Positions 734 through 31,516 of a stretch of DNA of 37,112 nt are shown piece by piece. A model generated the notes under the pieces. That model was given only the letters and a program-made list of their open reading frames with translations, was not told where the DNA came from and did not search any database. How positions within the stretch are numbered: the stretch's first letter is position 1; every line of letters starts with the position of its first letter. The position numbers and the translations under genes are program-made. Source of the stretch: Pseudomonadota bacterium. GTDB taxonomy: Bacteria; Pseudomonadota; Gammaproteobacteria; Burkholderiales; Burkholderiaceae_D. The stretch is taken from positions 1 to 37,112 of the forward strand of contig JAKACN010000018.1 in the NCBI GenBank assembly GCA_021821365.1, in the 5' to 3' direction.

Positions 734-895
734 GGAAGATTCGGGCAGATCGGTGAGCGGGTATTTTACGCTTGTGGGCGAGGGGGCCGGTCCGCAGAGG
801 CGGCTTTGCGCGACAAGTCACAGGCCGGGATTGCCTTCCAGCCTGTGCAACTCCACATGCGAGGCATGCTGCGACCGCGCACACCACCCAAGTGC

Positions 896-1720
896 TTACT
901 TCATCGCCGCAAACTGCGTCGCCGCAAAGTGCCCCTTCATGACATAGACATCCGGATTCGGATGCAATCCATCGCCGCAAATGTCCCACACGCTCTTGCC
1001 GGTGCTGGTCAGGTATTGCTTCAGGTAAGCGGTCTGGTCGATGACCGGGACGCTCTCGGCCGCAGCGGCGTCGCGCTGGGCCTGCGTAATCTGGTCATAG
1101 CTCAGGTCGCCGGCATGATTGCCCGGCCCGATCGTTTCGACGATGACTTTCTTGCCGTTGGCTTTGGCGATCTGGATCAGCTGGCGCACGCGCGAAGTGG
1201 TATTCGCCATCGTGTCGTGCGAGTGGTATTCGATGATGACGTGCGTGGCTTTGGATTGGGCCATCTGCTGAGTCCATGCCGGGTAGACGCCGTCGCCGGC
1301 GAGCGCGTTTTCCGCCAGGCGGCCCGGGCTGCCCATGTTGTGGACCGCCAGCCCGGTGTCAGCGGCAAATACGGCCGGCGCGGGTTGGTCGACGCGGCCC
1401 CAGTCGGTGTTCGGCATCCATCCCCAGATGATCGAATCGCCATAGTATTCAACCAGCGCCGGCGCGCTCGCGGCGGGGTTTGCGCTGTCTGCGGCAGGTG
1501 CGGGCGGCGCAGCTTCCTGTACAGGCGTGGGAGGCTGCGGCTGTGCTGTCTGGACGACATTCGTCTGCGCGGGAACCGCTCCGGCCGGTGCCGCTGCCGG
1601 CTGCGACACCACCGCCGCTTCGGAGGATTGCACATTGCTCGATGGAGTAGCACTTCCGCCGTTTCCTCCGCAAGCAGCGAGCAGGAATGGAACAACTGCA
1701 AAGAACGCGGATAGTTTCAT
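896..1720 (-). CDS. SGNH/GDSL-type hydrolase-like lipoprotein
   Basis: A 274-residue protein with a lipoprotein signal peptide: the lipobox FLLAAC puts the lipidated cysteine at residue 17. A low-complexity Pro/Ala/Gln linker (about 20-88) follows, then an SGNH-hydrolase-like domain. The block I motif YYGDSIIWGW carries the putative nucleophile Ser96, and block V reads DGLHPN with Asp250 and His253. Block III, normally GxND, reads EYHSHDT instead, so catalysis is uncertain. The likely role is an esterase or carbohydrate-deacetylase-like enzyme anchored at the cell envelope. An in-frame GTG three codons upstream (1729) is an alternative start. I chose the ATG because the signal peptide reads naturally from MKLSAFF. 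Confidence 0.8.
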   Translation of the reverse strand: MKLSAFFAVVPFLLAACGGNGGSATPSSNVQSSEAAVVSQPAAAPAGAVPAQTNVVQTAQPQPPTPVQEAAPPAPAADSANPAASAPALVEYYGDSIIWGWMPNTDWGRVDQPAPAVFAADTGLAVHNMGSPGRLAENALAGDGVYPAWTQQMAQSKATHVIIEYHSHDTMANTTSRVRQLIQIAKANGKKVIVETIGPGNHAGDLSYDQITQAQRDAAAAESVPVIDQTAYLKQYLTSTGKSVWDICGDGLHPNPDVYVMKGHFAATQFAAMK

Positions 1721-2155
1721 GATATGCACCAGGAATGCGTGGGCCCGGCAAGCGCAGGAATGGCTTTGCCCGGCGCCGTACGCGCATGCAGCCGCGGCGA
1801 TTAGTGCCTAAGGACAAATATCATTGTGCCAAGCCAATGGGCGGGATGACCGATGGAAAGACAAGCTGATCTACGGAAAGTTTCCACGCGGAGGCGAGCT
1901 GCCGGAATTGCGTGCATTGGCTGATGCAAGAACAGCATCGATTCGACATTGCCGATCGTGATCGGCTTGATGCAATGACATCATGCATGACGGATGTTCA
2001 CGCCGGGCATCTTCCATGAACAAATCTGGATTGCGCGATAACTTATCAAGCGAGGCCCGGTAGCGTGCGTTATGCGCATGATTCGTCGCGACGCGAAACG
2101 TCATTGCATTTCGTACGCGCAGCGCACGCTACGCATTTTGCTTCGGCCTTCGGAG
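1721..2155. other. 435-bp non-coding gap with a nested inverted repeat
   Basis: No convincing gene is present. The gap separates two minus-strand genes, so it should hold the promoter of the SGNH lipoprotein gene. The main structure is a perfect inverted repeat GCCGATC-GT-GATCGGC at 1951-1966, flanked by CATTGC and GCAATG, which could be an operator or small hairpin. A 77-codon open frame on the minus strand (1871-2104) has no recognisable domain and I did not accept it. Confidence 0.4.
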
Positions 2156-3841
2156 CTAGAATTCCTCCCACTCGCTCCCTGCGGCAAGCGCCGGGGCGGC
2201 GATGGATCTCTTCACCGGGCGTCGTGCCGCTACAGGCGTCGGGAGCGAGACCGGCCTCGCTCCCGGTGCGGCAACCGCCAGGCGCGTGGTATCCACCTGG
2301 AATGCGCTCACGAGCTGCACCAGTTGCTGCGCCTGCTCCTGCATCGCCTCGGACGCGGCCGCTGCCTGTTCCACCAGCGACGCATTCTGCTGCGTCACTT
2401 CGTCCATTTGTGCGATGGCCTGGTTGATCTGCTCGATGCCGGCGGTCTGCTCTCGCGAAGCCGCCGTGATTTCGCCGACGATGTCGCTCACGCGCTTCAC
2501 GCTGCCCACGATTTCGCCCATGGTCGCGCCGGCATCGTCGACGAGTTTGGCGCCGACACGGATCTTTTCGACCGAGTCGTTGATCAGGGTCTTGATCTCC
2601 TTCGCTGCGCCGGCGGAACGCTGCGCGAGACTGCGCACTTCGGTGGCGACCACGGCGAAGCCGCGTCCCTGCTCGCCGGCGCGCGCCGCCTCCACGGCGG
2701 CGTTGAGGGCGAGGATGTTGGTCTGAAAAGCGATGCCGTCGATCACGCCGATGATATCGACGATCTTCTTCGCCGATTCATTGATGGATCCCATGGTGTC
2801 CACCACCTGCGACACCACCGCGCCACCTCGACCGGCGACGTCGGACGCGGAAAGCGCGAGCATGTTTGCCTGCTGTGCATTGTCGGCGTTCTGCTTGACG
2901 GTCGAGGTCAGTTCCTCCATCGAGGACGCGGTCTGCTGCAGCGAGCTGGCCTGCTTTTCGGTGCGGGCGGACAGGTCGAGGTTGCCGGAGGCGATTTCGC
3001 CCGATGCCGTCGCGATGGTATCGGTGGCATGGCGCACCTGCGCGACGATGTTGGCGAGGTTGTCGCGCATTCCACGCATGGCGTGCAGCATGCTCGACTG
3101 GTCGTTCTGCTTGAGTTCAATATCCACCCGCAAGTCGCCGGAAGCGATGCGCGTGGCGACGGATGCCGCGAATTCCGGCTCGCCGCCGAGCCGCTTCAAC
3201 AGACCGCGCGTGATGAGAACACCGATGCCCGCCGCAATCATGATGGCAAGAATGCCGAGCGCAAGCATGACGGTGCGCGCATTCACAAAGGTCCGGTTCG
3301 CCGTCGCACCCGAAGCCTCGAGCTGGTCGACCTCGAACTTGATGAGCGCATCCAGGCTGGCCTGGTATTCCTTGAGAACGGGGCGCAACTCGGCCGCAAG
3401 GAAGGCTTTCGCTTCCGGAATCTTGTCGTCGTTGATCAGTGCGATGAGCTTTTCCTGCCCCTGGATATACTTGGCGCGCGCCTCGGACGCATCCCACAGC
3501 AGTTCCTTGCCCCTCTGCTGGGTGATCATCTTTTTCAGCGTAGAGAAATCGGATGACGCTTGCGCGCGCGCATCCGCGATGTCGCCGGCTTGCTTCTGCC
3601 GGTCATCCTTGCTGTCGGTCAGCATCATGTTCCGGAGCGCGATGGCCACCCGGTTGGTCTGTGCCTTGATGTCCGAGGCTGCCGCGATCTGCGGCCATCT
3701 GTTCTGAACGATGGCACTCGTGCCGCTGTCGAGGCTGCTTAACTGGCTGAGTCCGACGGCGAGGATGATCCACAATAAAATGCAGACGCTGCCGAAGCTC
3801 AGCGCAAGGCGCGTGCCGACTTTCATGTTTCGAATATCCAT
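2156..3841 (-). CDS. methyl-accepting chemotaxis protein (transmembrane chemoreceptor)
   Basis: A 561-residue chemoreceptor that would control CheA autophosphorylation. The ATG at 3841 ([16 protein letters not shown]) is the usual start for this family; the frame continues upstream without a credible start. TM1 spans about 12-34. A periplasmic four-helix-bundle sensor of the Tar/MCP type spans 35-190 and contains the RNMMLTD segment. TM2 spans 191-212, HAMP about 213-265 and the cytoplasmic signalling coiled coil 270-515. The conserved hairpin tip lies near 365-400 ([20 protein letters not shown]). The C-terminus is a flexible linker ending in EWEEF, similar to the NWETF pentapeptide that tethers CheR/CheB in enteric receptors. 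The ligand is unknown. No other che gene is in view. Confidence 0.95.
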
Positions 3842-4023
3842 GGGATTGTGCTTGCTGGAGATAGGGGGAGGCCGCTTCGCTGCTGCGCGAAGAAACTGGC
3901 GTGCAAGCTTATATTGCGTGAAGAAGTTGCCGCAGCACAAGTAAAAATTGCCGCGACCATACCGGCGATGCAAAATTCCAACGCCGCAGTGACCGAGAGT
4001 AAGTAGAGAGGGAGAGTCGAGAT

Positions 4024-4047
4024 GCCGGCGATCGGAAGATCGCCGGC
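4024..4047 (-). terminator. hairpin downstream of the acyl-CoA ligase gene
   Basis: A perfect inverted repeat with arms GCCGGCGATC/GATCGCCGGC and a 4-nt loop lies 32 bp past the ligase stop codon on the minus strand. There is no T-run after it, so it may be a 3' stabiliser or a weak terminator. Its position between two co-directional genes supports a transcript-end role. Confidence 0.45.
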
Positions 4048-4078
4048 CGCGAGGGAAGGGACGGGATGGCGATGCGTG

Positions 4079-5746
4079 CTACTTCGCCATCTCCTTCTCC
4101 TGCAAACTGCGCCACATCACCTTGCCGGTGGCGGATTTCGGCAGCGCCTCCACGAACTCCACGATGCGCGGCACCTTGTACGCAGCCATCTTGTCATGCG
4201 CCCACCTGACGATGTCGTCTTCGCTGGCCTCGACGCCGGCGCGCCTGACGATCACCGCCTTCACCGTCTCGCCGCGATAGGCATCGCGCGCCGCGATGAT
4301 GCAGCATTCCTGCACTGCCGGATGCTGGTACATCATCGACTCGACCTCCGCCGGCCACACCTTGAAGCCGCTGGCGTTGATCATGCGCTTGAGGCGATCG
4401 GTGAAGAAAAAGAAACCTTCCGCGTCCATGTAGCCAAGATCGCCGGAACGGAAGAATCGCTTGCCGTCGAGTTCCGCGAAGGCTTCCGCGGTCTTCTTCG
4501 GATCGTTCCAGTAGCCCTGGAATACCTGCGGGCCGTGAATCCAGATTTCGCCGGTCTCGCCCTGCGGCATTTCCTTGAACGTGTTCGGGTCGACGATGCG
4601 CGAATCGACGTTGAGGTAAGGAATGCCGAGGCATTGCTGCTTCATGCGCTTGGGTGGGTTGATGTGCGTTGCCGCCATCGTCTCGGACAGGCCGTAGCCT
4701 TCCATGTATTCCTGGCCGGTGAGTTCCAGCAGCTTCTGCGCGATTGCCGCCGGCATCGCGGCGCCGCCGCCGGAGACACGCTTCAGGCCCGAGATGTCGT
4801 ACTCGGCGAGGCGCGGATTGGACAGGAAATCGATCATCATGGTCGGGATCAGCGTCCACGTCGTTACCTTGTAGCGCGTGATGAGCTGGCCCGCCGCGTC
4901 GCGGTCCCAGCGCGGCAGCACGACGATGCCACCGCCGGAGAAGATCATGGTGTTCATCACCGACTGCATGCCGGTGACGTGGAAGAAGGGCAGCACCGCG
5001 AGCGTGACATGGTCCGGCACATTCGGCCCGGACCATGCGGGGCCGGCTGCCGCATTGAACATCAACGAGCGATGCGTATGCACGCAGCCCTTGGGTTTGC
5101 CAGTCGTGCCCGAGGTGTAGGGCATGCAGGCGAGGTCATCCGGACCGGCCTCATGCGCGCGCGGCTGGCGCCGCTCCGCCACGGCCGCCTTCCACGCCGC
5201 CACGCCGGGCGCCGCCGCGATCCCGTAGGGCGCGCGCACGAAATCCGGCACGTTGAGTTCGGTCGGCGCAATCAGGTAATCGGAATACGCGCCCACGATG
5301 GCATGCAGAAGTCCGCCCGCCCCACCCTCGCCGACCAGCGGCGCGACCCGCCCATACAACTCCTGCGCGACGATCGCAACCTTGGCGCCGCTGTCGTCCA
5401 CGTAGTGCCGCAACTCGTCGGTCACCAGCATCGGGTTGACCGGCACCACCATCGCATCGGCGCGCAGGATGGCGTAGAAGGCGATGATGAATTGCGGACT
5501 GTTCTGCATGTCGAGCAGCACCCGGTCGCCACGCTGCACGCCGCAGACGTGCTGCAGGTAGCCGGCGAGCGCCAGCACTTCCTCATGCATCTGGCGATAG
5601 CTGAGCACCGTGTCGTAGAAGATGATGGCCGGCTTGTCGGGGTAGCGGCGCGCGGACACTTCAAGGTTCACATAGACGCTGGTTTCCGGCGCCGTGATCG
5701 AGTAGGGAAGGCCCTCCGGCCAATAGCGGTAGTGGCTGGTGTTCAT
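4079..5746 (-). CDS. long-chain fatty-acyl-CoA ligase (AMP-dependent synthetase)
   Basis: A 555-residue ANL-superfamily adenylating enzyme that should activate a fatty or related carboxylic acid to its CoA thioester via an acyl-AMP. The phosphate-binding loop YTSGTTGKPKG is at 210-220, the A5 motif GYGLSET at 350-356, the A7 Asp in RSGDLGY near 436, the A8 hinge region TDRLKRMINASG after that, and the catalytic A10 lysine in KSATGK at 542. The start is the ATG at 5746, preceded by the purine-rich GAGAGAG. The open frame extends 39 codons further upstream without family similarity. The gene is divergent from the glutathione transferase gene. Substrate chain length cannot be set from sequence alone. 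Confidence 0.92.
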   Translation of the reverse strand: MNTSHYRYWPEGLPYSITAPETSVYVNLEVSARRYPDKPAIIFYDTVLSYRQMHEEVLALAGYLQHVCGVQRGDRVLLDMQNSPQFIIAFYAILRADAMVVPVNPMLVTDELRHYVDDSGAKVAIVAQELYGRVAPLVGEGGAGGLLHAIVGAYSDYLIAPTELNVPDFVRAPYGIAAAPGVAAWKAAVAERRQPRAHEAGPDDLACMPYTSGTTGKPKGCVHTHRSLMFNAAAGPAWSGPNVPDHVTLAVLPFFHVTGMQSVMNTMIFSGGGIVVLPRWDRDAAGQLITRYKVTTWTLIPTMMIDFLSNPRLAEYDISGLKRVSGGGAAMPAAIAQKLLELTGQEYMEGYGLSETMAATHINPPKRMKQQCLGIPYLNVDSRIVDPNTFKEMPQGETGEIWIHGPQVFQGYWNDPKKTAEAFAELDGKRFFRSGDLGYMDAEGFFFFTDRLKRMINASGFKVWPAEVESMMYQHPAVQECCIIAARDAYRGETVKAVIVRRAGVEASEDDIVRWAHDKMAAYKVPRIVEFVEALPKSATGKVMWRSLQEKEMAK

Positions 5747-5863
5747 TGTCTCTCTCGTTCTTGTAGTAAAGCTGATTATAGTTCGCAGCGGAAAACTTGC
5801 ACGATGCTGCGCCCTGCACGATTGTGCACCCTGAGCTACCATCGGGAATGTTAAGTTGTTCAC

Positions 5864-8887: not shown

Positions 8888-8906
8888 CGGTTCGGAAATC
8901 GAACGC
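8888..8906. promoter_or_regulatory. putative AcxR enhancer (upstream activating sequence) of acxABC
   Basis: The inverted repeat CGGTTCG-GAAAT-CGAACGC is centred about 118 bp upstream of the acxA -24 element. This is the expected position for a sigma-54 activator site. The same geometry (GTTCG-N5-CGRAC) recurs at 14484-14502 and 18627-18645, each upstream of another -24/-12 promoter. Assignment to AcxR is inference. Confidence 0.6.
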
Positions 8907-8910
8907 TTCG

Positions 8911-8931
8911 GACGTCCGGATTCTGGACGTC
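8911..8931. promoter_or_regulatory. second inverted repeat in the acx upstream region
   Basis: GACGTCC and GGACGTC form perfect 7-bp arms around a 7-nt centre, starting five bases after the putative enhancer. The left arm also lies in the palindrome CGGACGTCCG (8909-8918). It may be a second activator site or bind another regulator. Confidence 0.35.
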
Positions 8932-9014
8932 GCACGCCGCCTCTCCCTCCTCCACCCTTTCCCCGTTTTCGGCAAGCCATTGACGGCAAAGGGAATTTCA
9001 CGAAATGCCATCGC

Positions 9015-9029
9015 TGGCACAGCGCTTGC
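9015..9029 (+). promoter_or_regulatory. sigma-54 (-24/-12) promoter of acxABC
   Basis: TGGCAC-AGCGC-TTGC matches the RpoN consensus TGGCAC-N5-TTGC exactly. It lies 98 bp before the acxA ATG. A start site would be expected about 12 bases downstream of the -12 element. A sigma-54 activator gene follows the operon, and an inverted repeat lies about 118 bp upstream. Confidence 0.88.
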
Positions 9030-9127
9030 GAAATGAAGCCCGAACCATCGTGGTGAATGCGGTGTGTTTTGGTTACGGCGCCGTTTTCTCGGCACCCGTG
9101 AAAGACAACAACGGAAGGAGATAGGCT

Positions 9128-11272
9128 ATGCAAGTGCAATCACAAGTGCAGGTGATGGGTATCGATGCCGGCGGCACGATGACCGACACCTTTTTCGTTC
9201 GCTCCGACGGCCGCTTCGTCGTCGGCAAGGCGCAGAGCAATCCCGAGGACGAATCGCTCGCGATCTTCAATTCCTCCAAGGATGCGCTGGCGCACTGGAA
9301 GCGCGACGTCGATGATGTGTATCCCGAGCTGCTGACCTGCGTGTACTCCGGCACGGCGATGCTGAACCGCGTGGTGCAGCGCAAAGGCCTCGATGTGGGC
9401 CTGATGGTGAACAAGGGCTTCGAGCACGTGCATTCGATGGGGCGCGCCATCCAGTCCTACCTCGGCTATGCGCTGGAAGAGCGCATCCACCTCAACACCC
9501 ACCGCTACGATGAGCCGCTGGTGCCGCTGTCGCGCACCCGCGGCGTGACCGAGCGCACCGACGTGCAGGGCGAGGTGGTGGTGCCGCTGCGCGAAGATGA
9601 AGTGCGCCAAGCCACGCGCGAACTGGTCGCCGCCGGGTCGAAGGCCATCGTGATCTGCTTCCTGCAGTCGCACAAGAACGGCAACAGCGAGCAGCGTGCC
9701 CGTGATGTCGCGCGCGACGAGCTGAAGAAGATGAGCTGCGACATCCCGGTGTTCGCCTCGGTGGACTACTATCCGCAGCGCAAGGAAAGCCATCGCATGA
9801 ACACCACCGTGCTGGAAGCCTACGCGGCGGAACCCTCGCGCCAGACACTGAAGAAGGTCAGCGACCGCTTCAAAAAGCACGGCGCGAAATTCGATCTGCG
9901 CGTGATGGCGACACACGGCGGCACCATCAGCTGGAAGGCGAAGGAGCTGGCGCGCACCATCGTCTCCGGCCCGATCGGCGGCGTGATCGGTTCCAAGCTG
10001 CTGGGCGAGGCGCTGGGCTATGACAACATCGCCTGCTCCGACATCGGCGGCACCTCCTTCGACATGGCCCTGATCACCAAGGGCAACTTCGCGATCGCCT
10101 CCGATCCTGACATGGCGCGCCTGGTGCTGTCGCTGCCGCTGGTGACGATGGATTCCGTCGGCGCGGGCGCGGGCAGCTTCGTGCGGCTCGACCCGTACAG
10201 CGGCGCGATCAAGCTCGGACCGGACAGCGCCGGCTATCGCGTCGGTACCTGCTGGCCGGAGAGCGGACTGGATACGGTTTCCGTGTCCGACTGCCACGTC
10301 GTGCTTGGCTACCTCAATCCGGACAACTTCCTTGGCGGCGCCATCAAGCTCGACGTGGACCGCGCGCGCCAGCACATCAAGCAGCAGATCGCCGATCCGC
10401 TCGGCCTGTCGGTGGAAGACGCGGCCGCCGGCGTGATCGAACTGCTCGATCTGCAACTGCGCGAGTACCTGCGTTCGAACGTCAGCGCGAAGGGTTACAA
10501 CCCGACCGACTTCGTGTGCTTCTCCTACGGCGGCGCCGGCCCGGTGCATACCTACGGCTATACCGAAGGGCTGGGCTTCAAGGACGTGATCGTGCCGGCC
10601 TGGGCGGCGGGCTTCTCGGCCTTCGGCTGCGCCTGCGCGGATTTCGAATACCGCTACGACAAGAGCGTGGACCTGGCCGTGCCGCAGCATGCCACCGATG
10701 CGGCCAAAGTACAGGCCGCACAGACCATCCAGAACGCATGGGCCGACCTGGCTGCCAAAGTGATCGAGGAATTCAAGATCAACGGCTTCAAGGCGGAAGA
10801 GGTGATCCTGCGCCCCGGTTATCGCATGCAGTACATGGGCCAGCTGAACGATCTCGAAATCAGCTCGCCGATTTCCAGCGCGGCCACCGCGAAGGACTGG
10901 GACCAGATCGTCGATGCCTTCGAGGAAACCTATGGCCGCGTCTACGCCAGCTCGGCGCGCTCGCCGGAACTCGGCTTCTCCGTGACCGGCGCAATCATGC
11001 GCGGCATGGTGATGACGCAGAAGCCGGTGCTGCCGGAAGATCCGGAAGGCGACAGCAAGCCGCCGAAGGAAGCGCACATCGGCACCCGTCCGCTGTACCG
11101 CGGCAAGCAATGGCATGAAGCCGTGCTGTGGAAGATGGAAGCGCTCAAGCCGGGCAACGTCATCGTCGGCCCCGCCATCATCGAATCCGACGCCACCACC
11201 TTCGTCGTGCCGCGCGGCTTCTCGACCACGCTCGACAAGCATCGCCTTTTCCACCTGAAAGAAGTCAAGTAA
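9128..11272 (+). CDS. acxA: acetone carboxylase beta subunit
   Basis: A 714-residue protein of the hydantoinase A/acetone carboxylase beta family, close to the ~717 residues of the Xanthobacter beta subunit. The ASKHA-type nucleotide-binding start GIDAGGTMTDTF is at 11-22, with later phosphate and adenosine elements such as CSDIGGTSFDMA. This subunit is thought to phosphorylate the substrates of ATP-dependent acetone carboxylation (acetone + bicarbonate to acetoacetate). Identity rests on the order beta-alpha-gamma (714/774/168 residues), which is specific for acetone carboxylase rather than hydantoinase or acetophenone carboxylase. A strong AAGGAG precedes the ATG. The gene is driven by the sigma-54 promoter at 9015. 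It is cytoplasmic, within an alpha2beta2gamma2 complex. Confidence 0.93.
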   Translation: MQVQSQVQVMGIDAGGTMTDTFFVRSDGRFVVGKAQSNPEDESLAIFNSSKDALAHWKRDVDDVYPELLTCVYSGTAMLNRVVQRKGLDVGLMVNKGFEHVHSMGRAIQSYLGYALEERIHLNTHRYDEPLVPLSRTRGVTERTDVQGEVVVPLREDEVRQATRELVAAGSKAIVICFLQSHKNGNSEQRARDVARDELKKMSCDIPVFASVDYYPQRKESHRMNTTVLEAYAAEPSRQTLKKVSDRFKKHGAKFDLRVMATHGGTISWKAKELARTIVSGPIGGVIGSKLLGEALGYDNIACSDIGGTSFDMALITKGNFAIASDPDMARLVLSLPLVTMDSVGAGAGSFVRLDPYSGAIKLGPDSAGYRVGTCWPESGLDTVSVSDCHVVLGYLNPDNFLGGAIKLDVDRARQHIKQQIADPLGLSVEDAAAGVIELLDLQLREYLRSNVSAKGYNPTDFVCFSYGGAGPVHTYGYTEGLGFKDVIVPAWAAGFSAFGCACADFEYRYDKSVDLAVPQHATDAAKVQAAQTIQNAWADLAAKVIEEFKINGFKAEEVILRPGYRMQYMGQLNDLEISSPISSAATAKDWDQIVDAFEETYGRVYASSARSPELGFSVTGAIMRGMVMTQKPVLPEDPEGDSKPPKEAHIGTRPLYRGKQWHEAVLWKMEALKPGNVIVGPAIIESDATTFVVPRGFSTTLDKHRLFHLKEVK

Positions 11273-11283
11273 GGAGACAGACC

Positions 11284-13608
11284 ATGAATATGATGTCCAG
11301 CAAGGAAGTCGGCTTTGCCGACCTGCTCAAGACCGGCCAGACGCTCAAGGAATTCCGTGACGGCATCCTGGAACGCACCGCCGCGACGGGCCACTACAAC
11401 GGCCTGGAGCGCCTCGAATTCCGCGAGAAGGATCCGATCCATTACGAGAAGCTGTTCTCGAAGCTGCGCGGCGGCCTGGTGCATGCACGCGAAACGGCGA
11501 AGAAGATCGCGGCCAGCCCGATCGTGGAGCAGGAAGGCGAACTGTGCTTCACGCTCTACAACGCGGCCGGCGACTGCGTGCTGACCTCGACCGGGATCAT
11601 CATCCACGTCGGCACCATGGGCGCGGCGATCAAGTACATGATCGAGAACAACTGGGAAGACAATCCCGGCATCAATCCCGGCGACATGTTCACCAACAAC
11701 GACTGCTCGATCGGCAATGTGCACCCCTGCGACATCGCCACCATCGTGCCGATCTTCGCCAAGGGCAAGCTGGTCGGCTGGGTCGGCGGCGTCACGCACG
11801 TGATCGATACCGGCGCGGTCACGCCGGGTTCGATGTCCACCGGCCAGACGCAGCGCTTCGGCGACGGCTACATGATCACCTGCCGCAAGACCGGCGTGAA
11901 CGACACGCCGCTGCGCGACTGGCTGCACGAAAGCCAGCGCTCGGTGCGCACGCCGAAGTACTGGATCCTGGACGAGCGCACCCGCATCGCCGGCTGCCAC
12001 ATGATCCGCGACCTGATCGAGGAAGTGATCGAGGAGGAAGGCCTGGAAGCCTACGAGCAGTTCTCCTACGAAGTGATCGAGGAAGGCCGGCGCGGCCTGC
12101 AGACCCGCATCAAGGCGATGACGCTGCCGGGCAAGTACCGCAAGGTGGCCTTCGTCGACGTGCCCTACGCGCATGAGGACGTGCAGACCTCCAACGCCTT
12201 CGCCAAGCTCGATTCCATCATGCACTCGCCGGTGGAAATGGAGATCCGCAAGGACGGATCCTGGCGCCTCGATTTCGAAGGCGCGAGCCGCTGGGGCTGG
12301 CACTCCTACAACGCGCACCAGGTGGCCTTCACCAGCGGCATCTGGGTGATGATGACGCAGACCCTGGTGCCGACCCAGCGCATCAATGATGGCGCCTACT
12401 TCGGCACCGAGTTCCACCTGCCCAAGGGCAGCTGGATGAACCCGGACGACCGCCGCACCGGCCACGCGTATGCATGGCACTTCCTGGTGTCGGGCTGGAG
12501 CGCGATGTGGCGCGGACTGTCGCAGGCCTACTTCAGCCGCGGCTACCTGGAAGAAGTCAATGCCGGCAATGCCAACACCTCGAACTGGCTGCAGGGCGGC
12601 GGCATCAACCAGGACGGCGACATCCACGCGGTCAACAGCTTCGAAGCTTCGTCCTGCGGCACCGGCGCCTGCGCGATCAAGGATGGCCTGAACCATGCGG
12701 CCGCGATCTGGAATCCCGAAGGCGACATGGGCGACATCGAAATCTGGGAAATGGCCGAACCGCTGCTCTACCTGGGCCGCAACGTGAAGACCAACTCCGG
12801 CGGCTACGGCAAGTATCGCGGCGGCTGCGGCTTCGAGACGCTGCGCATGGTGTGGAAGGCACAGGACTGGACCATGTTCTTCATGGGCAATGGCTACATG
12901 AACAGCGACTGGGGCCTGATGGGCGGCTATCCGGCAGCGACCGGCTATCGCTTCGAAGCGCACAAGACCGGCCTGAAGGAGCGCATTGCCGCCGGCGACA
13001 CGCTGCCGCTGGGCGCGGATGCCAACCCGGACCTGCCGGATTACGAGAACCACCTGAACGCGGGTGCGACCGTCAAGCGCGACAAGCAGTGCATGACCAC
13101 CGAGGACTGCTACGACAACTACGACCTGTACCTGAACTACCTGCGCGGCGGCCCGGGCTTCGGCGATCCGCTCGATCGCGAGATCGACGGCATCGAGCGC
13201 GACCTGAACAACGCGCTGCTGCTGCCCGAGTACGCGCAGAAGGTGTACGGCGCAGTGGCGAAGAAGGACGTCAACGGCATCTTCACCGTCGATGCGAAGA
13301 AGACCGCGTTGATGCGCCTGGAAATCCGCAAGCAGCGCCTGGCGCGTTCGCAGCCGACGCGCGAATGGATGAAGGGAGAACGCGACCGCATCCTGGTCAA
13401 GCACGCCTCGACGCAGGTACAGCATATGTTCGCCACCAGCTTCGGCATGTCGACGAAGTTCGAGCAGCAGTTCCGCAATTTCTGGGACCTGCCGACTTCC
13501 TGGACCCTGACCGAAGATGAGCTGGATGTGCCGACCTACGGTTCGAAGTTCCGCATGGACCTGTCGCAGATGCCCGATGTCAAGACCGTCGTGCTGGTCG
13601 AAGAATAA
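11284..13608 (+). CDS. acxB: acetone carboxylase alpha subunit
   Basis: A 774-residue hydantoinase B-family protein, matching the ~776-residue alpha subunit of Xanthobacter acetone carboxylase. The segment NNDCSIGNVHPCDI carries His147 and Asp150, and GGVTHVID carries His172. With an offset of three these correspond to the residues described as Mn ligands in the Xanthobacter enzyme (His150, Asp153, His175), as I recall them. The subunit should carboxylate the activated enol form of acetone to acetoacetate at the Mn site. The ATG at 11284 follows a clear AAGGAG, 11 bp after the acxA stop, indicating co-transcription. The open frame extends further 5' inside acxA but without similarity. Confidence 0.94.
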   Translation: MNMMSSKEVGFADLLKTGQTLKEFRDGILERTAATGHYNGLERLEFREKDPIHYEKLFSKLRGGLVHARETAKKIAASPIVEQEGELCFTLYNAAGDCVLTSTGIIIHVGTMGAAIKYMIENNWEDNPGINPGDMFTNNDCSIGNVHPCDIATIVPIFAKGKLVGWVGGVTHVIDTGAVTPGSMSTGQTQRFGDGYMITCRKTGVNDTPLRDWLHESQRSVRTPKYWILDERTRIAGCHMIRDLIEEVIEEEGLEAYEQFSYEVIEEGRRGLQTRIKAMTLPGKYRKVAFVDVPYAHEDVQTSNAFAKLDSIMHSPVEMEIRKDGSWRLDFEGASRWGWHSYNAHQVAFTSGIWVMMTQTLVPTQRINDGAYFGTEFHLPKGSWMNPDDRRTGHAYAWHFLVSGWSAMWRGLSQAYFSRGYLEEVNAGNANTSNWLQGGGINQDGDIHAVNSFEASSCGTGACAIKDGLNHAAAIWNPEGDMGDIEIWEMAEPLLYLGRNVKTNSGGYGKYRGGCGFETLRMVWKAQDWTMFFMGNGYMNSDWGLMGGYPAATGYRFEAHKTGLKERIAAGDTLPLGADANPDLPDYENHLNAGATVKRDKQCMTTEDCYDNYDLYLNYLRGGPGFGDPLDREIDGIERDLNNALLLPEYAQKVYGAVAKKDVNGIFTVDAKKTALMRLEIRKQRLARSQPTREWMKGERDRILVKHASTQVQHMFATSFGMSTKFEQQFRNFWDLPTSWTLTEDELDVPTYGSKFRMDLSQMPDVKTVVLVEE

Positions 13609-13640
13609 TCCGGCCCGCACCACACACGAAAGGAAGCAAG

Positions 13641-14147
13641 ATGTCTACTTATACGAGTGAACAAATCAAGAACCTGGTCGATGGCAAGCTGGACTGGGAC
13701 ACCACGCTGCGCATGCTGTCGATGCCGAAGGACGGCGAGCGTTTCCGCATGTATGTCGAGACCCTGCAGAAAAAGCTGGGGTGGAACGACCGCATCGTCC
13801 TGCCGCTGGGCCCGCACATGTACATCGTACAGCAGGCCAGGACGAAGAAGTGGGTCACGCAATGCGACTGCGGGCATGTGTTCTGCGACTACCGCGAGAA
13901 CTGGAAGCTGCACGCGAACGTCTATGTGCGCGACAACGAGGAAGCCATGACGGAAGTCTATCCGCGCCTGATGGCCCCCGACACCAGCTGGCAGGTGTAC
14001 CGCGAGTACTACTGCCCGGAATGCGGCACCATGCACGACGTCGAAGCGCCGACCCCATGGTATCCGGTGATCCACGACTTCGAACCGGACATCGAGGCGT
14101 TCTACAAGGAATGGGTGAAGCTGCCGGTGCCGGAGCGGGTGGATTGA
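13641..14147 (+). CDS. acxC: acetone carboxylase gamma subunit
   Basis: A 168-residue protein, the same length as the Xanthobacter gamma subunit. It carries paired cysteine clusters, CDCGHVFC at 75-82 and CPEC at 125-128, consistent with a structural zinc site. The conserved start SEQIKNLVDGKLDW is typical of AcxC. It should complete the alpha2beta2gamma2 complex in the cytoplasm. GAAAGGAAG precedes the ATG, and the gene lies 32 bp after acxB in the same operon. Its presence distinguishes this cluster from two-gene hydantoinase loci. Confidence 0.94.
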   Translation: MSTYTSEQIKNLVDGKLDWDTTLRMLSMPKDGERFRMYVETLQKKLGWNDRIVLPLGPHMYIVQQARTKKWVTQCDCGHVFCDYRENWKLHANVYVRDNEEAMTEVYPRLMAPDTSWQVYREYYCPECGTMHDVEAPTPWYPVIHDFEPDIEAFYKEWVKLPVPERVD

Positions 14148-14158
14148 TGTAAACCCCT

Positions 14159-14436
14159 TGTCCACGAAAAACACAAAAGACACGAAAAGTGGAAAAGACG
14201 GAAACTGACGTTAATGCTGTTCAGTCAATCCGGGCTGTCCTTGTGACGTCGTCCCCGTGAAGGCGGGGACCCAGTTTCTTGCGGTTCAAATACCGCCAGA
14301 CTGAATTCCCGCCTTCAGAGGGTATAAGGTTTCACCTTGACTGAACCCACCCAGCAGAAACGTGCAATAGCGTTCTTCGCGAGGCATGAGGTCTTCAGCC
14401 TCTGCAACAGGGCACGCCGAGTGTTTTTCGTGGACA
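14159..14436. repeat. segment bounded by inverted copies of the denitrification-region repeat
   Basis: Bases 14159-14188 are identical to one arm (34800-34829) of the palindrome between norQ and norD. Bases 14421-14436 match the end of the opposite arm in inverted orientation. The ~280-bp segment has no coding content and contains the GTCCCCG/CGGGGAC palindrome. It could be a degenerate miniature element or two independent repeat insertions. Confidence 0.55.
14250..14269. repeat. small GC-rich palindrome (REP-like)
   Basis: GTCCCCG-TGAAGG-CGGGGAC is followed by ACCCAGTTTCTT. It looks like a short dispersed extragenic palindrome. Only one copy was noticed in this window, so its repetitive nature is inferred. 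Confidence 0.4.
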
Positions 14437-14480
14437 AACATGAATGAAACACGACTTCAGTGACCCCATCGTTCGATTGC

Positions 14481-14505
14481 CGGCCGTTCGATTTTCGGAC
14501 GGCCG
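14481..14505. promoter_or_regulatory. putative AcxR enhancer upstream of the regulator gene
   Basis: 10-bp arms with one mismatch surround a 5-nt ATTTT centre; the core CCGTTCG-ATTTT-CGGACGG spans 14484-14502. The core matches the spacing of the sites at 8888 and 18627 and is centred about 135 bp upstream of the -24 element at 14628. Because T-rich sequence follows, it could instead be a terminator of acxABC, or serve both roles. Confidence 0.45.
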
Positions 14506-14598
14506 TTTCGTTTTCGGCCGGCCGGCCTCTCCCCCGGCCAGCATCGTTCAAGCACGATCCGGCGGCATGCCTAGAGAGAGAAAAAACAGCGCGCGTCA

Positions 14599-14618
14599 CG
14601 CTGGCGGACATGCCAGCG
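14599..14618. promoter_or_regulatory. inverted repeat next to the acxR -24 element
   Basis: CGCTGGC-GGACAT-GCCAGCG has perfect 7-bp arms and ends 10 bp before the -24 element. This is a suitable position for a repressor or accessory protein. A lone GCGTTCG half-site overlaps its right end. Confidence 0.35.
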
Positions 14619-14627
14619 TTCGATTGC

Positions 14628-14643
14628 TGGCATGTGCCTTGCT
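14628..14643 (+). promoter_or_regulatory. sigma-54 (-24/-12) promoter of the regulator gene
   Basis: TGGCAT-GTGCC-TTGCT fits the RpoN consensus with one change (C to T at the sixth base). It lies 162 bp before the acxR-like ATG, which implies a ~145-nt leader. Together with the upstream inverted repeat it suggests positive autoregulation. Confidence 0.7.
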
Positions 14644-14804
14644 GGGTTGTCACCCCGACATCTTTATATCAAGACGGTAATCAATCGAATGGAGTAGGAT
14701 AGGCCGACAAGATGCCTTGGCAAGCCGCCAAAAGGCACACCGGCACGCAGGGAGCGAACAAATCGAGAGAGCCCGGACAACCCGGGCCGATGAGGAGATA
14801 CGGA

Positions 14805-16820
<2,016 letters not shown>

Positions 16821-16833
16821 TTTTCGGCGCAAA

Positions 16834-16869
16834 AATAGAGGGAGCGCCACGCACAGCGCTCCCTCTATT
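16834..16869 (-). terminator. intrinsic terminator between convergent acxR and the acyl-CoA synthetase gene
   Basis: Perfect 13-bp arms AATAGAGGGAGCG/CGCTCCCTCTATT surround a 10-nt loop. On the minus strand the stem ends in a TTTTT run, so it is a good intrinsic terminator for the synthetase transcript. On the plus strand it lies 13 bp after the acxR stop but lacks a long T-run. Confidence 0.8.
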
Positions 16870-16904
16870 GCGTGGACGGTTCATTCCATACGTCATGCCT
16901 CCTG

Positions 16905-18408
16905 TCACGTCGAGGACAAGGTTTGTCTCAACGCGGTTTTCAGGACCTTGCCGTAGTTGTTCTTCGGAAGGGCGGGCACCATGCGGTATTCCTTCGGGCG
17001 CTTGAAGCGGGCGATATGGGCCAGGCACAAGGCATCGAGCTCGGCGGTCGCGACCGGCTTTCCCTTCGCGCAGACGACGAAGGCAACCACCTCCTCGCCC
17101 CACTCCGCGCTATGGCGACCGACCACGGAGACTTCGGCCACCGCCGGATGCATCAGCAGCACTTCCTCCACTTCGCGCGGATAGATGTTCGACCCGCCGC
17201 TGATGATGATGTCCTTCGAGCGATCCTTCAGCGTGAGGAATCCGTCGTCATCGAACCTGCCGACGTCGCCGGTATGGAGCCAGCCGTCGCGCAGCGTCTG
17301 TCCGGTGGCCTCGGGATTGTTCCAGTAGCCGTGCATCACGGTCGCCCCGCGCACGACGATCTCGCCGCTCTCCCCCGCCGGCACCTCCCTGCCATCCGCA
17401 TCGACGACGCGCACCTCCACCGCCGACTGCGCCACGCCCACCGAGCCGAGCCGCTCCAGGTAGCGCGCATGCTCCGTCTGCGCGAGATGGAATTTCGACA
17501 GGGCGGTGATCGTCATCGGCGTTTCGCCCTGGCCGTAGATCTGCACGAAGCGCTGCCCCATCACCCGCAGCGCGCGGCGAATGTCCTCGACATACATCGG
17601 CCCGCCGCCATACACGATCGTCTTGATGCCTTCCGCAGCCCCGGCATGCGACGCGCAATGGTCGACCAGTCGACGCACCATGGTGGGCGCGGCGAACATC
17701 GACAGGTTGCGGTACCGCCGGCCCAGTTCGCCGATTTCCTCGACCGAGAAGCCGCCGGACTCGGGCACCACATGCCGCGCACCGGCCAGCACATGCGGAA
17801 AGTTGTACAGACCCGCGCCGTGCGACATCGGCGCCGCATACAGCATGCTGTCGTTCATCGTGACCGTATCGACGTCGGTGAAGTAGCACTGCGTCATGGC
17901 CAGCAGGTTGTCATGCGTGAGCATCACTCCCTTGGGTTTGCCCGTCGTGCCGGAAGTGTAGAACAACCAGGCAAGGTCGCCCGGTGTGTAGTGCGCTATC
18001 GACGCTTGCCCGTCCGCGGCAAACAGGGAGCGGTATTGCGCGGAGGCGACGCTGACTATCGCTGCCGCGGCCGGGACATCGAGGGCGTCCGCGACAAACA
18101 GCAAGGCGACGCCGGCGTCGTCGAGAATGTATTGCACTTCCTTCGGATGCAGTTTGGCGTTGATCGGCACAGCGACCAGACCCGCATGCCAGATCGCATA
18201 CAGGATCTCGAGGTAAGCGGGACAGTTGTGCATGAACAGGCCGACGCGATCGCCGCGCCGCAGAGCGAAGCGATTGCGCAATGCATCCGACAAGGCGCAG
18301 ACACGACGCGCCAGTTCCCGATAGCTATAAAGCTCTCTGTTGCCGTGCGCGAGCGCCGGCCGATCGGGAAATCGCTTTGCGACGCGTGAGAAGATTCGCC
18401 AGATTCAC
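16905..18408 (-). CDS. acyl-CoA synthetase (AMP-binding), N-terminus interrupted by an apparent frameshift
   Basis: An ANL-family CoA ligase of about 500 residues. The body contains FYTSGTTGKPKG, the A5-like GQGETP, TGDVGRF, KDRSKDIIISGG and the terminal LPKNNYGKVL with the catalytic lysine. The natural start appears to be GTG at 18408 (VNLANLLT) after AAAGGAAC. That frame hits a stop about 27 codons later, whereas the next frame reads RVAKRFPDRPALAHGNREL and runs into the body. The join is near 18384 and needs one base removed or two added. This is either a sequencing error or a real lesion; otherwise translation would have to start at TTG 18293 without the N-terminal segment. A -24/-12 promoter at 18509-18494 suggests co-regulation with acxABC, so acetoacetate is a candidate substrate (inference). 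Confidence 0.85.
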
Positions 18409-18493
18409 TCGTGTTCCTTTCCTTGGTCTGTGGCCTGTTGCCTGGTTGATGGCCGCGCACCATTCTTGATGCCGCGCCCCCGGCATGCCCTTT

Positions 18494-18509
18494 CGCAAAG
18501 AGCATGCCT
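18494..18509 (-). promoter_or_regulatory. sigma-54-like promoter of the acyl-CoA synthetase gene
   Basis: On the minus strand the sequence reads AGGCAT-GCTCT-TTGCG. It keeps the invariant GG and GC dinucleotides at correct spacing and differs from TGGCAC at the first and sixth bases. It ends about 86 nt before the GTG start. It is divergent from the -24/-12 promoter at 18779, and both flank the shared inverted repeat at 18627. Confidence 0.6.
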
Positions 18510-18626
18510 GCCGCCCGCATTGCCGCGACACCCGCGAAAGGCCTTGTGCCGTGTGGCTTTCCGCATGTTCCACGTCGCGTAACCATTCCTTCGCCGCCGT
18601 TTCGAAACCGGTCGCTCCTTCGGAAT

Positions 18627-18645
18627 GCGTTCGAAGGTCGAACGC
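18627..18645. promoter_or_regulatory. putative shared AcxR enhancer between divergent sigma-54 promoters
   Basis: GCGTTCG-AAGGT-CGAACGC is a perfect inverted repeat (8-bp arms if the AGG core is taken as spacer). Its centre is about 128 bp from the minus-strand -24 element and 143 bp from the plus-strand one. It is the best copy of the motif also found upstream of acxA and acxR. Confidence 0.65.
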
Positions 18646-18778
18646 GCCCGCCGCTGCATCAACGATGGCGACGACGTCCTGCACATCGCACGCATTCGCG
18701 CGCTTCCATGCGTTTCCCTTCTGGTGTCATGCTGGCGCGTGTTCCCGCGTTCCGTTCTCGATCGAGTGTGGCAGTCAC

Positions 18779-18794
18779 TGGCATGCTCCTTGCA
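18779..18794 (+). promoter_or_regulatory. sigma-54 (-24/-12) promoter of the 53-residue small gene
   Basis: TGGCAT-GCTCC-TTGCA matches the RpoN consensus except for T in place of C at the sixth base. It ends 55 bp before the ATG at 18850. The rest of the 438-bp gap (18409-18846) holds no recognisable gene. Confidence 0.8.
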
Positions 18795-18849
18795 AAAATC
18801 GGTGCAGACCTGATGCATCGGCATCAGCTAACCGCACACGGAGCACATG

Positions 18850-19011
18850 ATGGAAAAGCCCGCACAACCCACGAAGGAACAGGTCCGGAGATATCTGGAA
18901 CAGCGGCAGCGCGAGCGCCGTCCGCCGCCATCCATGGAGGAAATCCGGCGCCAGCTTGGATGGGGAATGGCCTGCGGGAATGGCTTGTTACCGACCTTGC
19001 GCCGCCTGTGA
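18850..19011 (+). CDS. small unknown protein (53 aa) under a sigma-54 promoter
   Basis: The frame MEKPAQPTKEQVRRYLEQRQ continues with a Pro-rich turn and then MEEIRRQLGW near residue 38. It is an Arg/Gln/Glu-rich, probably two-helix protein with no signal peptide or membrane segment. A GGAG at 18840-18843 is spaced six bases from this ATG, which favours it over the ATG one codon upstream. A near-consensus -24/-12 promoter lies 55 bp before it. I do not recognise a family with certainty. The charged amphipathic composition suggests a cytoplasmic binding or regulatory role. The C-terminus after LGW looks less protein-like and the gene could be truncated there. Confidence 0.6.
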   Translation: MEKPAQPTKEQVRRYLEQRQRERRPPPSMEEIRRQLGWGMACGNGLLPTLRRL

Positions 19012-19041: not shown

Positions 19042-19701
19042 TCAGCGCTTCCGCGCCAATGTCAGGCCATCGCCGATCGGCACCATGGATAAATCGATCC
19101 GCTGGTCCTGGTGCAGCTTGCGATTGAAATCCTGGATCGCCGCGGTATCCTCGTCCATCGCCGGCAGGGCGACGCGCCCGCCCCACAGCACGTTGTCCAC
19201 GGCGATTACGCCACCGGCGCGCAGCAACCGCAGGCAGCGTTCGTAATAGGCGTCGTAGCCGGTCTTGTCGGCATCGATGAAGGCAAAGTCGAAGGCGCCT
19301 TCCTGTCCCTGCGCGATCAGGTCATCCAGCGTCTGAAGCGCCGGCGCGATGTGCAGCACGATCTTGTGCGCGACGCCGGCCTTGTCGAAGCAGGCGCGCG
19401 CCACGTCGGTGTATTCGCGGCTGATGTCGCAGGCGATCACGCGCCCGTCGTCCGGCAATGCAAGCGCAACGGCAAGCGCACTGTAGCCGGTGAAAACGCC
19501 GATCTCCAGTGTGCGACGCGCCCCCAGCATTTTCACCAGTAGCGCCATGAACTGGCCCTGCTCGGGCGCGATCTGCATATTGGCGAGCGGATGCCGGTGT
19601 GTTTCCGCGCGGAGTTCCGCGAGCACCGGATGCTCCCGCAGCGATACATCGAGCAGGTACCGGTACAACGCGTCGTTCAAATCAATGGTGCGGTTCGACA
19701 T
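19042..19701 (-). CDS. class I SAM-dependent O-methyltransferase
   Basis: A 219-residue enzyme of the catechol/caffeoyl-CoA O-methyltransferase family. The SAM-binding motif I reads LEIGVFTGYSALAVALAL, followed by VIACDISREY and the metal-site segment FIDADKTGYDAYYE. A second metal ligand region, DNVLWGGRV, is also present. It should methylate a vicinal hydroxyl using a divalent cation. The ATG at 19701 (MSNRTIDLND) has purine-rich AGGAAGAG upstream and is the normal family start. The next 11 upstream codons lack similarity. The gene converges on the small sigma-54-driven gene, and its natural substrate is unknown. Confidence 0.92.
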   Translation of the reverse strand: MSNRTIDLNDALYRYLLDVSLREHPVLAELRAETHRHPLANMQIAPEQGQFMALLVKMLGARRTLEIGVFTGYSALAVALALPDDGRVIACDISREYTDVARACFDKAGVAHKIVLHIAPALQTLDDLIAQGQEGAFDFAFIDADKTGYDAYYERCLRLLRAGGVIAVDNVLWGGRVALPAMDEDTAAIQDFNRKLHQDQRIDLSMVPIGDGLTLARKR

Positions 19702-19894
19702 GCCTGGCTCTTCCTCAGCCTGCGCCTGAAACAATTGCGCTGGACGTCTATACTTTCAGTCATCGCATCACCGGTCGGCATTTCCTGCCGCCACGACGCT
19801 AAGCGTGCCGTGACAACCTGCCCGACACTACACGCATCGCCGCTCCGCTCCTTGCGACAGCACAAGGAGTGTCGCGCCTTTCCCGAGGAACAAC

Positions 19895-31500: not shown

Positions 31501-31516
31501 TGGCACCGTTATTGCT
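31501..31516 (+). promoter_or_regulatory. sigma-54 (-24/-12) promoter of the nor operon
   Basis: TGGCAC-CGTTA-TTGCT is an exact RpoN consensus match, 35 bp upstream of the 41-residue peptide gene and 173 bp before norC. nor operons controlled by the NO-sensing activator NorR use such promoters in Ralstonia-type bacteria. One GT-N7-AC sequence, a possible NorR half-site pattern, is at 31387-31397. No norR gene is in the window. Confidence 0.85.

What the first reader, a model, noticed from the sequence alone, without database searches (positions are those of the whole stretch)
8888..18794. Four -24/-12 promoters with a common inverted-repeat enhancer define a putative AcxR regulon
Seen in sequence: GTTCG-N5-CG(A/G)AC inverted repeats at 8888-8906, 14484-14502 and 18627-18645. 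Each is centred about 118-143 bp from a -24/-12 element (9015, 14628, 18509 on the minus strand, 18779), and the last two promoters share one repeat. A TGGCAY-N5-TTGC pattern is expected only about 0.14 times by chance on both strands of a 37-kb window with even base composition, yet three acx-region promoters fit it, plus the nor promoter; the fourth acx-region one is near-consensus. Known: sigma-54 activators bind palindromes about 100-200 bp upstream, and AcxR/AcoR-type activators control acetone or acetoin genes. Inference: the repeat is the AcxR binding site.
Basis: partly seen in the sequence, partly recalled or inferred. Interest (0 to 1): 0.85.

Follow-up and report, generated by a model that had tools for sequence, protein, structure and literature searches.

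The report
Acetone-pathway switch with shared binding sites
A bacterium's acetone-eating genes, the regulator that probably controls them, a likely acetoacetate-activating enzyme and a tiny unknown protein all sit behind the same kind of DNA switch, and the same switch sequence recurs beside acetone genes in many other bacteria, which offers a testable binding site for that regulator.

Summary
Confirmed and largely explained. The three palindromes (8890-8904, 14486-14500, 18629-18643) and four -24/-12 elements are present. The own genome holds 22 GTTCG-N5-CGRAC places, no more than its reversed control. The 3 here have -24/-12 elements nearby; of the 19 others, one has a one-mismatch element and none an exact one within about 350 bp. 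In 81 acx loci GTYCG-N5-CGRAC is over 100 times denser upstream of acxA than elsewhere. A weight matrix built without the window ranks the sites 1, 2 and 4 of 37 kb and adds 8914-8928. Operator letters differ with the AcxR recognition helix. Best reading: AcxR enhancer sites driving sigma-54 promoters of acxABC, acxR, an acyl-CoA ligase and a 54-aa protein. The third site is weakest, but a homologous small protein in another genus has its own operators and promoter beside acx. AcxR and its sigma-54 promoter were known (PMC2864759, PMC2244623); my searches found no AcxR operator. The serious rival, an IclR site (same consensus form, PMC8222616), fits poorly: 3 of 103 stretches show an IclR gene. 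No binding or transcript was measured.

The parts
8890..8904 (.). AcxR operator A1 (GTTCGGAAATCGAAC), centre 118 bp before the acxA -24 element
   Evidence: score 22.3, rank 2 in window
   Evidence: score 15.9, rank 3 in window
9015..9029 (+). -24/-12 promoter of acxABC (TGGCACAGCGCTTGC)
9128..11272 (+). acxA, hydantoinase A-type subunit
   Evidence: 94% identical to L001
11299..13608 (+). acxB, hydantoinase B-type subunit (start chosen from homology; the ORF list starts this frame at 11128)
13641..14147 (+). acxC, acetone carboxylase gamma subunit
   Evidence: PF08882
14471..14485 (.). weak adjacent operator copy (GTTCGATTGCCGGCC)
   Evidence: score 9.4, rank 5
14486..14500 (.). AcxR operator R1 (GTTCGATTTTCGGAC)
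   Evidence: score 22.9, rank 1
14628..14642 (+). -24/-12 promoter of acxR (TGGCATGTGCCTTGC)
14712..16820 (+). acxR, GAF - sigma-54 activation (AAA+) - Fis-type HTH enhancer-binding protein; the only sigma-54 activator found on this contig
18629..18643 (.). shared operator of the divergent pair (GTTCGAAGGTCGAAC), centre with two G, weakest of the three
   Evidence: score 13.0, rank 4
18495..18509 (-). -24/-12 promoter of the acyl-CoA ligase (AGGCATGCTCTTTGC, one mismatch)
16905..18408 (-). AMP-forming acyl-CoA synthetase, probably acetoacetate-activating (inferred); likely GTG start at 18408 behind AAGGAAAGGAA, but the first codons lie in another frame than the body (frame break near 18390)
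   Evidence: homologues at 50-62% identity in acx loci L017, L040, L041, L043, L068, L074 (partial), L077, L201
18779..18793 (+). -24/-12 promoter of the small ORF (TGGCATGCTCCTTGC)
   Evidence: same 15-mer at acx or phaZ promoters of L199, L200, L201, L202, L206, L207
18847..19011 (+). 54-aa small protein of a multi-copy family (consensus PTKEQVRxWLxxR...PPPxPxEIRRxLGW)
   Evidence: no Pfam family near its cut-off

Best explanation
The palindromes are enhancer sites for AcxR, the GAF-AAA+-Fis enhancer-binding protein encoded at 14712-16820. On sensing acetone or a related compound (inferred), AcxR dimers bind GTYCG-RWWWY-CGRAC sites, mostly about 80-150 bp upstream of the -24 element, oligomerise, and by DNA looping remodel sigma-54 RNA polymerase at -24/-12 promoters. 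This turns on acxABC (acetone to acetoacetate), acxR itself (positive autoregulation) and, from one shared operator at 18629-18643, a divergent pair: an acyl-CoA ligase that probably makes acetoacetyl-CoA, and a 54-aa protein of unknown action. Shown: sites, promoters, spacing, conservation, and the link of operator letters to the AcxR recognition helix. Inferred: binding, effector, looping, ligase substrate, role of the small protein.
For: GTYCG-N5-CGRAC density is 12.8 (acxA) and 28.1 (acxR) per 10 kb upstream in group A and 30.2 upstream of acxA in group B, against 0.10-0.22 elsewhere. A matrix trained on 71 sites of the 80 named loci, without the window, gives window sites 14486, 8890, 8914, 18629, 14471 as the top five. 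Of 14 regions of family genomes with an AcxR gene that do not overlap training loci, 13 have an operator (score 10.5 or more) with an outward -24/-12 of at most one mismatch at 100-133 bp (11 before acxA, 2 elsewhere: L199, L202). The same is seen in C. metallidurans CH34, P. phymatum STM815 and Ancylobacter polymorphus (close relatives of the first two were in training). The spacer, left free in the selecting pattern, is 89-98% A/T at its three middle positions. A T half-site occurs in 33 of 41 loci with sites for AK helices and in 0 of 16 for SR/AR helices. acxA distances favour a 10.3-bp period. Own genome: no exact -24/-12 near the 19 other palindromes; 0 of 16 fetched palindromes in relatives away from acx have a -24/-12 of up to one mismatch within 190 bp (one of the 16 is an own-genome place). 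The small-protein homologue in another genus has operators plus promoter beside acx.
Against: 20 of 77 acxA upstreams show no operator at score 11 or more; 14 of 54 group A loci have no exact site. In group B none of 17 acxR upstreams has a recognised -24/-12, so autoregulation is not general. M. extorquens CM4, with acxR-acxABC, has only a weak match (4.8), though 135 bp from the promoter. L198 has AcxR and no operator. acsX relatives lack an operator plus promoter within 400-450 bp upstream; L017 has such a pair further up. The small protein lies near acx in 2 of 17 family genomes with AcxR, window included, some of these stretches being short, and in none of the 80 named loci. The 18629 site has a GC-containing centre. 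A chance operator-plus-promoter combination lies inside a coding gene of L195. The helix-operator link rests on two clades and may be one event; 4 of 71 regulators had no readable helix and were left out. The phase signal is weak for acxR (p 0.02, 0.06 on distinct distances; best period 13.8). The palindrome is not enriched genome-wide and its form also fits IclR sites.
Confidence: 0.88

Rival explanations
1. The palindromes are binding sites of an IclR-family regulator (PcaR/HmgR type), whose consensus GTNCG-N5-6-CGNAC has the same form.
For: PMC8222616 gives that consensus (passages). In a relative the look-alike GTTCGATTATCGAAC lies between what I read by eye as a CoA-transferase gene pair and an IclR-type gene (L153). 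In the own genome one of the 19 other palindromes (C236:11946) lies about 400 bp from the IclR_C domain of a protein closely similar to that of L153.
Against: No IclR_C match on the window's contig; 3 of 103 stretches (80 named loci, 22 further regions, window; two are duplicates, some are short, some lack acx) show an IclR-type gene by a home-made profile at E 1e-5, while AcxR is found in 71 of 81 loci. At acxA, sites lie 87-151 bp upstream of -24/-12 elements, an enhancer position. Operator letters vary with the AcxR helix.
Confidence: 0.04
2. Only acxABC and acxR are AcxR targets; the third palindrome and the divergent promoters at 18495-18509 and 18779-18793 are chance or decayed.
For: Weakest operator (13.0) with a GC-containing centre; one promoter has A for the first T; the ligase shows a frame break; no operator plus promoter near the start of acsX relatives; the 14 other genomes of the genus searched have no similar DNA here beyond short matches in two, over the small ORF.
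Against: Fourth best site of 37 kb in a matrix trained elsewhere; two outward-facing promoters at 127 and 143 bp that match each other over GGCATGCTCYTTGCRAAA; ribosome-binding-like sequences before both genes; a small-protein homologue in another genus has its own operators plus TGGCATGCTCCATGC beside acx; acsX homologues lie in 8 of 96 other acx-type stretches.
Confidence: 0.2
3. The repeats are conserved only through shared descent of the acx region, without function.
For: Many loci are close relatives (acxB 83-94% identical), so counts are not independent.
Against: Sites recur at different distances and singly or in pairs spaced 15 to 33 bp, and in front of different genes (second acxR copies, PHB depolymerase, CoA transferase, an FMO-type oxygenase), with an AT-rich centre that was not selected for.
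Confidence: 0.02

Closest known systems
AcxR / sigma-54 control of acetone carboxylase (Xanthobacter autotrophicus Py2, Cupriavidus metallidurans CH34)
   Same: acxABC with an AcxR-type activator and a TGGCATGNNNNTTGC promoter in the acxR-acxA region of CH34, induction on acetone given there as a personal communication (PMC2864759, passages); AcxR and sigma-54 control in X. autotrophicus as cited in PMC2244623 (passages).
   Different: There acxR precedes or diverges from acxABC and no operator is given in the passages read; here acxR follows acxABC, has its own operator and -24/-12 element, and a third operator serves a ligase and a small protein. The original X. autotrophicus paper is not held.
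Paraburkholderia phymatum acx locus (Bphy_6150-6153)
   Same: Same acxABC-acxR order; the authors suggest that the downstream sigma-54 regulator controls acxABC (PMC8305402, passages). Operators found here at both promoters.
   Different: No binding site in the passages read; neither the ligase nor the small ORF was found by tblastn in the 16 kb fetched.
IclR-family operators (PcaR, PcaU, PobR, HmgR)
   Same: GTNCG-N5-6-CGNAC consensus form (PMC8222616, passages).
   Different: Different protein family; no IclR gene on the window's contig; enhancer spacing to -24/-12 elements.
AcoR-type GAF enhancer-binding proteins (acetoin)
   Same: GAF - AAA+ - Fis HTH architecture (domains; the resemblance to AcoR is recalled).
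   Different: Their operators were not compared here.

Membership tests
sigma-54 enhancer-binding protein, AcxR type | sigma-54 interaction AAA+ domain, GAF sensor, Fis-type HTH | tested here: met
   PF00158, PF01590, PF02954 all above cut-off
sigma-54 enhancer-binding protein, AcxR type | encoded near acxABC in relatives | tested here: met
   71 of 81 loci (window included) hold an AcxR-like gene over 250 bits
sigma-54 enhancer-binding protein, AcxR type | binds the palindrome and activates with RpoN | not testable with these tools
   indirect only: link of recognition helix and operator letters
sigma-54 promoters | TGGCAY-N5-TTGC at the proper place before the gene | tested here: met
   three exact, one with one mismatch in the acx region; 75 of 77 acxA upstreams with at most one mismatch
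acetone carboxylase operon | three subunits including the gamma subunit | tested here: met
   PF05378/PF01968/PF19278, PF02538, PF08882; acxB 94% identical to named relatives. Acetophenone carboxylase models score far below their cut-offs. Enzyme activity not tested
AcxR regulon membership of the acyl-CoA ligase and small protein | operator plus outward -24/-12, repeated in another genome | tested here: inconclusive
   small protein: repeated in one other genus; ligase: close pair only in the window; in L017 an operator (13.5) and a one-mismatch promoter lie before a 72-aa ORF and the ligase
IclR-regulated genes | IclR gene nearby | tested here: not met
   none on contig C387; 3 of 103 stretches

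The most novel reading that the evidence does not exclude
AcxR controls a wider ketone-use programme built from one operator: acxABC, itself, acetoacetate-activating enzymes (ligase, CoA transferase, thiolase), PHB depolymerase, even an FMO/Baeyer-Villiger-type oxygenase with a hydrolase, plus several unrelated small proteins (54, 72 and 77-86 aa) that different lineages have put behind the same enhancer and that may tune the carboxylase or storage metabolism.
Probability: 0.35. Interest if true: 0.65.

Novelty: new member of a known kind. Interest (0 to 1): 0.5.

Why it matters
It gives AcxR a specific, testable operator (GTYCG-RWWWY-CGRAC), which would let acetone regulons be read from sequence, and it points to unstudied small proteins and PHB depolymerase as possible parts of acetone metabolism. 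It also warns that the same palindrome form belongs to IclR regulators, so the form alone cannot assign a regulator.

Tried and rejected
IclR reading: judged unlikely from gene context. Genome-wide regulon beyond this contig: of 19 other GTTCG-N5-CGRAC places in the own genome, only L120 shows a -24/-12 of up to one mismatch (both strands of one short palindromic stretch), so no further member was found (two stretches were cut short by contig ends, and degenerate operators were not sought there). The tight pattern GTTCGRWWWYCGRAC did not separate genomes with and without AcxR: 22 of 60 genomes, own included, have it. Of the 16 places fetched, none has a -24/-12 of up to one mismatch within 190 bp; I read the genes of three: two lie inside a reading frame that looks like transketolase, one between a CoA-transferase-like pair and an IclR-type gene (read by eye). 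acsX relatives carry no operator plus promoter close upstream. No NorR-type site (GTCA-N3-TGAC, up to one mismatch) lies just upstream of the nor promoter. The small-protein family as generally sigma-54-driven: 5 of 40 domain hits have a -24/-12 of up to one mismatch in the 245 bp upstream (3 exact), against about 0.03 expected per stretch; suggestive only, and three of the 40 are double or doubtful hits. The first phaZ query had a wrong frame and was redone. In one search loci L088-L099 were skipped through a naming slip and done.

Caveats on counts: the matrix was trained on sites from the 80 named loci, so its counts on those loci are partly circular; searches are the cleaner tests. In one search four of 81 loci dropped out for acxA because too little or no upstream DNA was held. 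Papers: only passages were seen of PMC2864759, PMC8305402, PMC3621897, PMC2244623, PMC8784404 and PMC8222616; all others were seen as listings, which for several calls were capped.
Full report
What is there. The window is contig C387 of a 5.27-Mb draft of 419 contigs. A congener, G006, is identical over 5,058 bases to Noviherbaspirillum denitrificans TSA40 (L082 against L001), so the window is very probably a Noviherbaspirillum. Gene order: acxA 9128-11272, acxB 11299-13608, acxC 13641-14147, acxR 14712-16820 (GAF, sigma-54 activation, Fis HTH), an AMP-forming acyl-CoA ligase on the minus strand, a 54-aa ORF at 18847-19011 and an O-methyltransferase 19042-19734 (-).

The three palindromes are exact, the -24/-12 elements are at the stated places, and the distances of 118, 135, 127 and 143 bp follow from these coordinates. 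The own genome has 22 palindromic places in 5.27 Mb, so about 0.15 are expected in this window and 3 are seen; the palindrome is not enriched genome-wide (20+12 matches, reversed control 23+18). None of the 19 other places has an exact -24/-12 within about 350 bp (two stretches were cut short by contig ends) and one has a one-mismatch element. TGGCAY-N5-TTGC occurs 77 times in the genome against 10 for the reversed pattern, so sigma-54 promoters are a real class here.

Conservation. Eighty named loci around acxB relatives were fetched, the best of 383. With the window that is 81 loci: 54 with AcxR at 46% identity or more (group A), 17 with a more distant AcxR (group B) and 10 with none found. 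Exact GTYCG-N5-CGRAC lies 60-330 bp upstream of acxA or acxR in 40 of 54, 14 of 17 and 5 of 10. Densities are 12.8 and 28.1 per 10 kb (group A acxA, acxR), 30.2 and 3.3 (group B acxA, acxR) and 22.2 (no AcxR found, acxA), against 0.10-0.22 elsewhere. Some of the elsewhere hits are acxR promoters too: in L035, L037, L038 and L049 a site lies beyond acxC; in L037 and L049 a second acxR gene follows it, 52% identical to the window's in L049. A -24/-12 with at most one mismatch is there in 75 of 77 acxA upstreams, an operator with matrix score of 11 or more in 57 of 77, both in 55 of 77 (the matrix was trained on many of these sites). For acxR the figures in group A are 36 (operator), 32 (promoter) and 30 (both) of 53; in group B 15 of 17 have an operator and none a recognised -24/-12. 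Matrix background in the rest of the same loci: 25 sites in 1.586 Mb.

Independent checks. The matrix, which never saw the window, ranks 14486, 8890, 8914, 18629 and 14471 first to fifth of the window. In the family, 17 of 392 genomes, own included, have AcxR at E 1e-150; of the 14 fetched regions not overlapping training loci, 13 show operator plus promoter, 11 of them before acxA; L198 shows none. C. metallidurans CH34, said to induce acetone carboxylase on acetone (personal communication in PMC2864759), has GTCCGGAATCCGGAC 140 bp from its promoter; P. phymatum has operators at both acxA and acxR; Ancylobacter polymorphus has one; M. extorquens CM4 only a weak one.

Link to the regulator. 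Of 71 regulators, 67 have a readable recognition helix: IAKSTLY (once VAKSTLY) in 50 and I[SA]RSTLY in 17. With a pattern that leaves the third base free, 33 of 41 AK loci with sites have a T half-site (9 more have no site) and none of 16 SR/AR loci (1 more has no site); Fisher 1.3e-8, but the two groups are largely two clades, so this may be one event. acxA distances prefer a period near 10.3 bp (64 sites; Rayleigh p about 8e-5 at 10.5 bp, 0.008 on distinct distances); acxR distances do so much less (40 sites, p 0.02 and 0.06).

The third unit. Operator 18629-18643 has centre AAGGT and scores 13.0. The two outward promoters match over GGCATGCTCYTTGCRAAA. The minus promoter leads to a GTG at 18408 behind AAGGAAAGGAA; the residues read from there (VNLANLLTR) resemble the N-terminus of the L017 homologue (MNLAHLLLR), but the body of the gene continues in another frame. 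This is either a sequencing error or a broken gene. The plus promoter leads to the 54-aa ORF (GGAG before ATG 18847), a member of a small-protein family with matches in 20 of 60 genomes, own included. In G035, another genus, a homologue lies between acxR and acxA with its own operator-like sites, TGGCATGCTCCATGC and a ribosome-binding-like sequence, followed by separate operators and promoter for acxA. None of the other 15 family regions has one, nor any of the 80 named loci.

A wider regulon in relatives. Operator plus promoter pairs also precede a PHB depolymerase divergent from acxR (L202; in L199 with an exact promoter and operator-like sites below the score cut), a 3-oxoacid CoA-transferase subunit (L078), a thiolase with a degenerate -24 (L056), an LRAT-domain protein (Pfam run on L059; L054, L067, L080 alike by eye), a 77-86-aa protein (L035, L037, L038, L039, L049) and a 72-aa ORF before the ligase (L017). 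In Beijerinckia indica an AcxR-like regulator with the same helix lies beside a flavin monooxygenase-like gene and a serine hydrolase with operator plus one-mismatch promoter. These are single predictions. A chance combination inside a coding gene in L195 shows that false positives occur.

Rival and novelty. IclR-family regulators use GTNCG-N5-6-CGNAC (PMC8222616, passages), so the motif form is not specific. No IclR_C match lies on C387 and 3 of 103 stretches show an IclR-type gene. Searches for a published operator (open-access library only, lists partly capped, Sluis et al. 2002 not held) showed none in the listings and passages seen. The system is a sigma-54 enhancer-binding-protein regulon of a known kind with a newly proposed operator.

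Noticed in passing
window 18380-18410 (-): The acyl-CoA ligase has its likely start codon and first residues in a different frame from the rest; draft assembly error or broken gene.
   Followed up: partly
L199 6100-6560 (-): A relative keeps an acxA-like promoter, operators and leader start, but no acxABC was detected in the 19 kb fetched; acxR there is divergent from a PHB depolymerase gene.
   Followed up: partly
L214 4111-5409 (-): On a Neorhizobium petrolearium plasmid an extra sigma-54 factor gene lies two genes from an AcxR-like activator, with CoA transferase and hydantoinase-type genes.
   Followed up: no
L035, L037, L039, L049 about 13.0-15.2 kb; L038 from about 11.8 kb: A second AcxR-like gene with its own operator and -24/-12 lies downstream of acxC (gene read in L037 and L049; the others inferred from the same operator-promoter layout).
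   Followed up: partly
G000:C400:1050-1330 (L165): A paralogue of the 54-aa protein in the own genome also lies behind an exact TGGCAY-N5-TTGC, without an AcxR operator.
   Followed up: partly
window 31501-31515 (+): Exact -24/-12 before a cytochrome c gene (norC-like) of a nor cluster; no NorR-type site seen just upstream at up to one mismatch.
   Followed up: partly
window 125-5854: Three long plus-strand ORFs have no Pfam or NCBIfam match; long opposite-strand ORFs overlap them and were not analysed.
   Followed up: no
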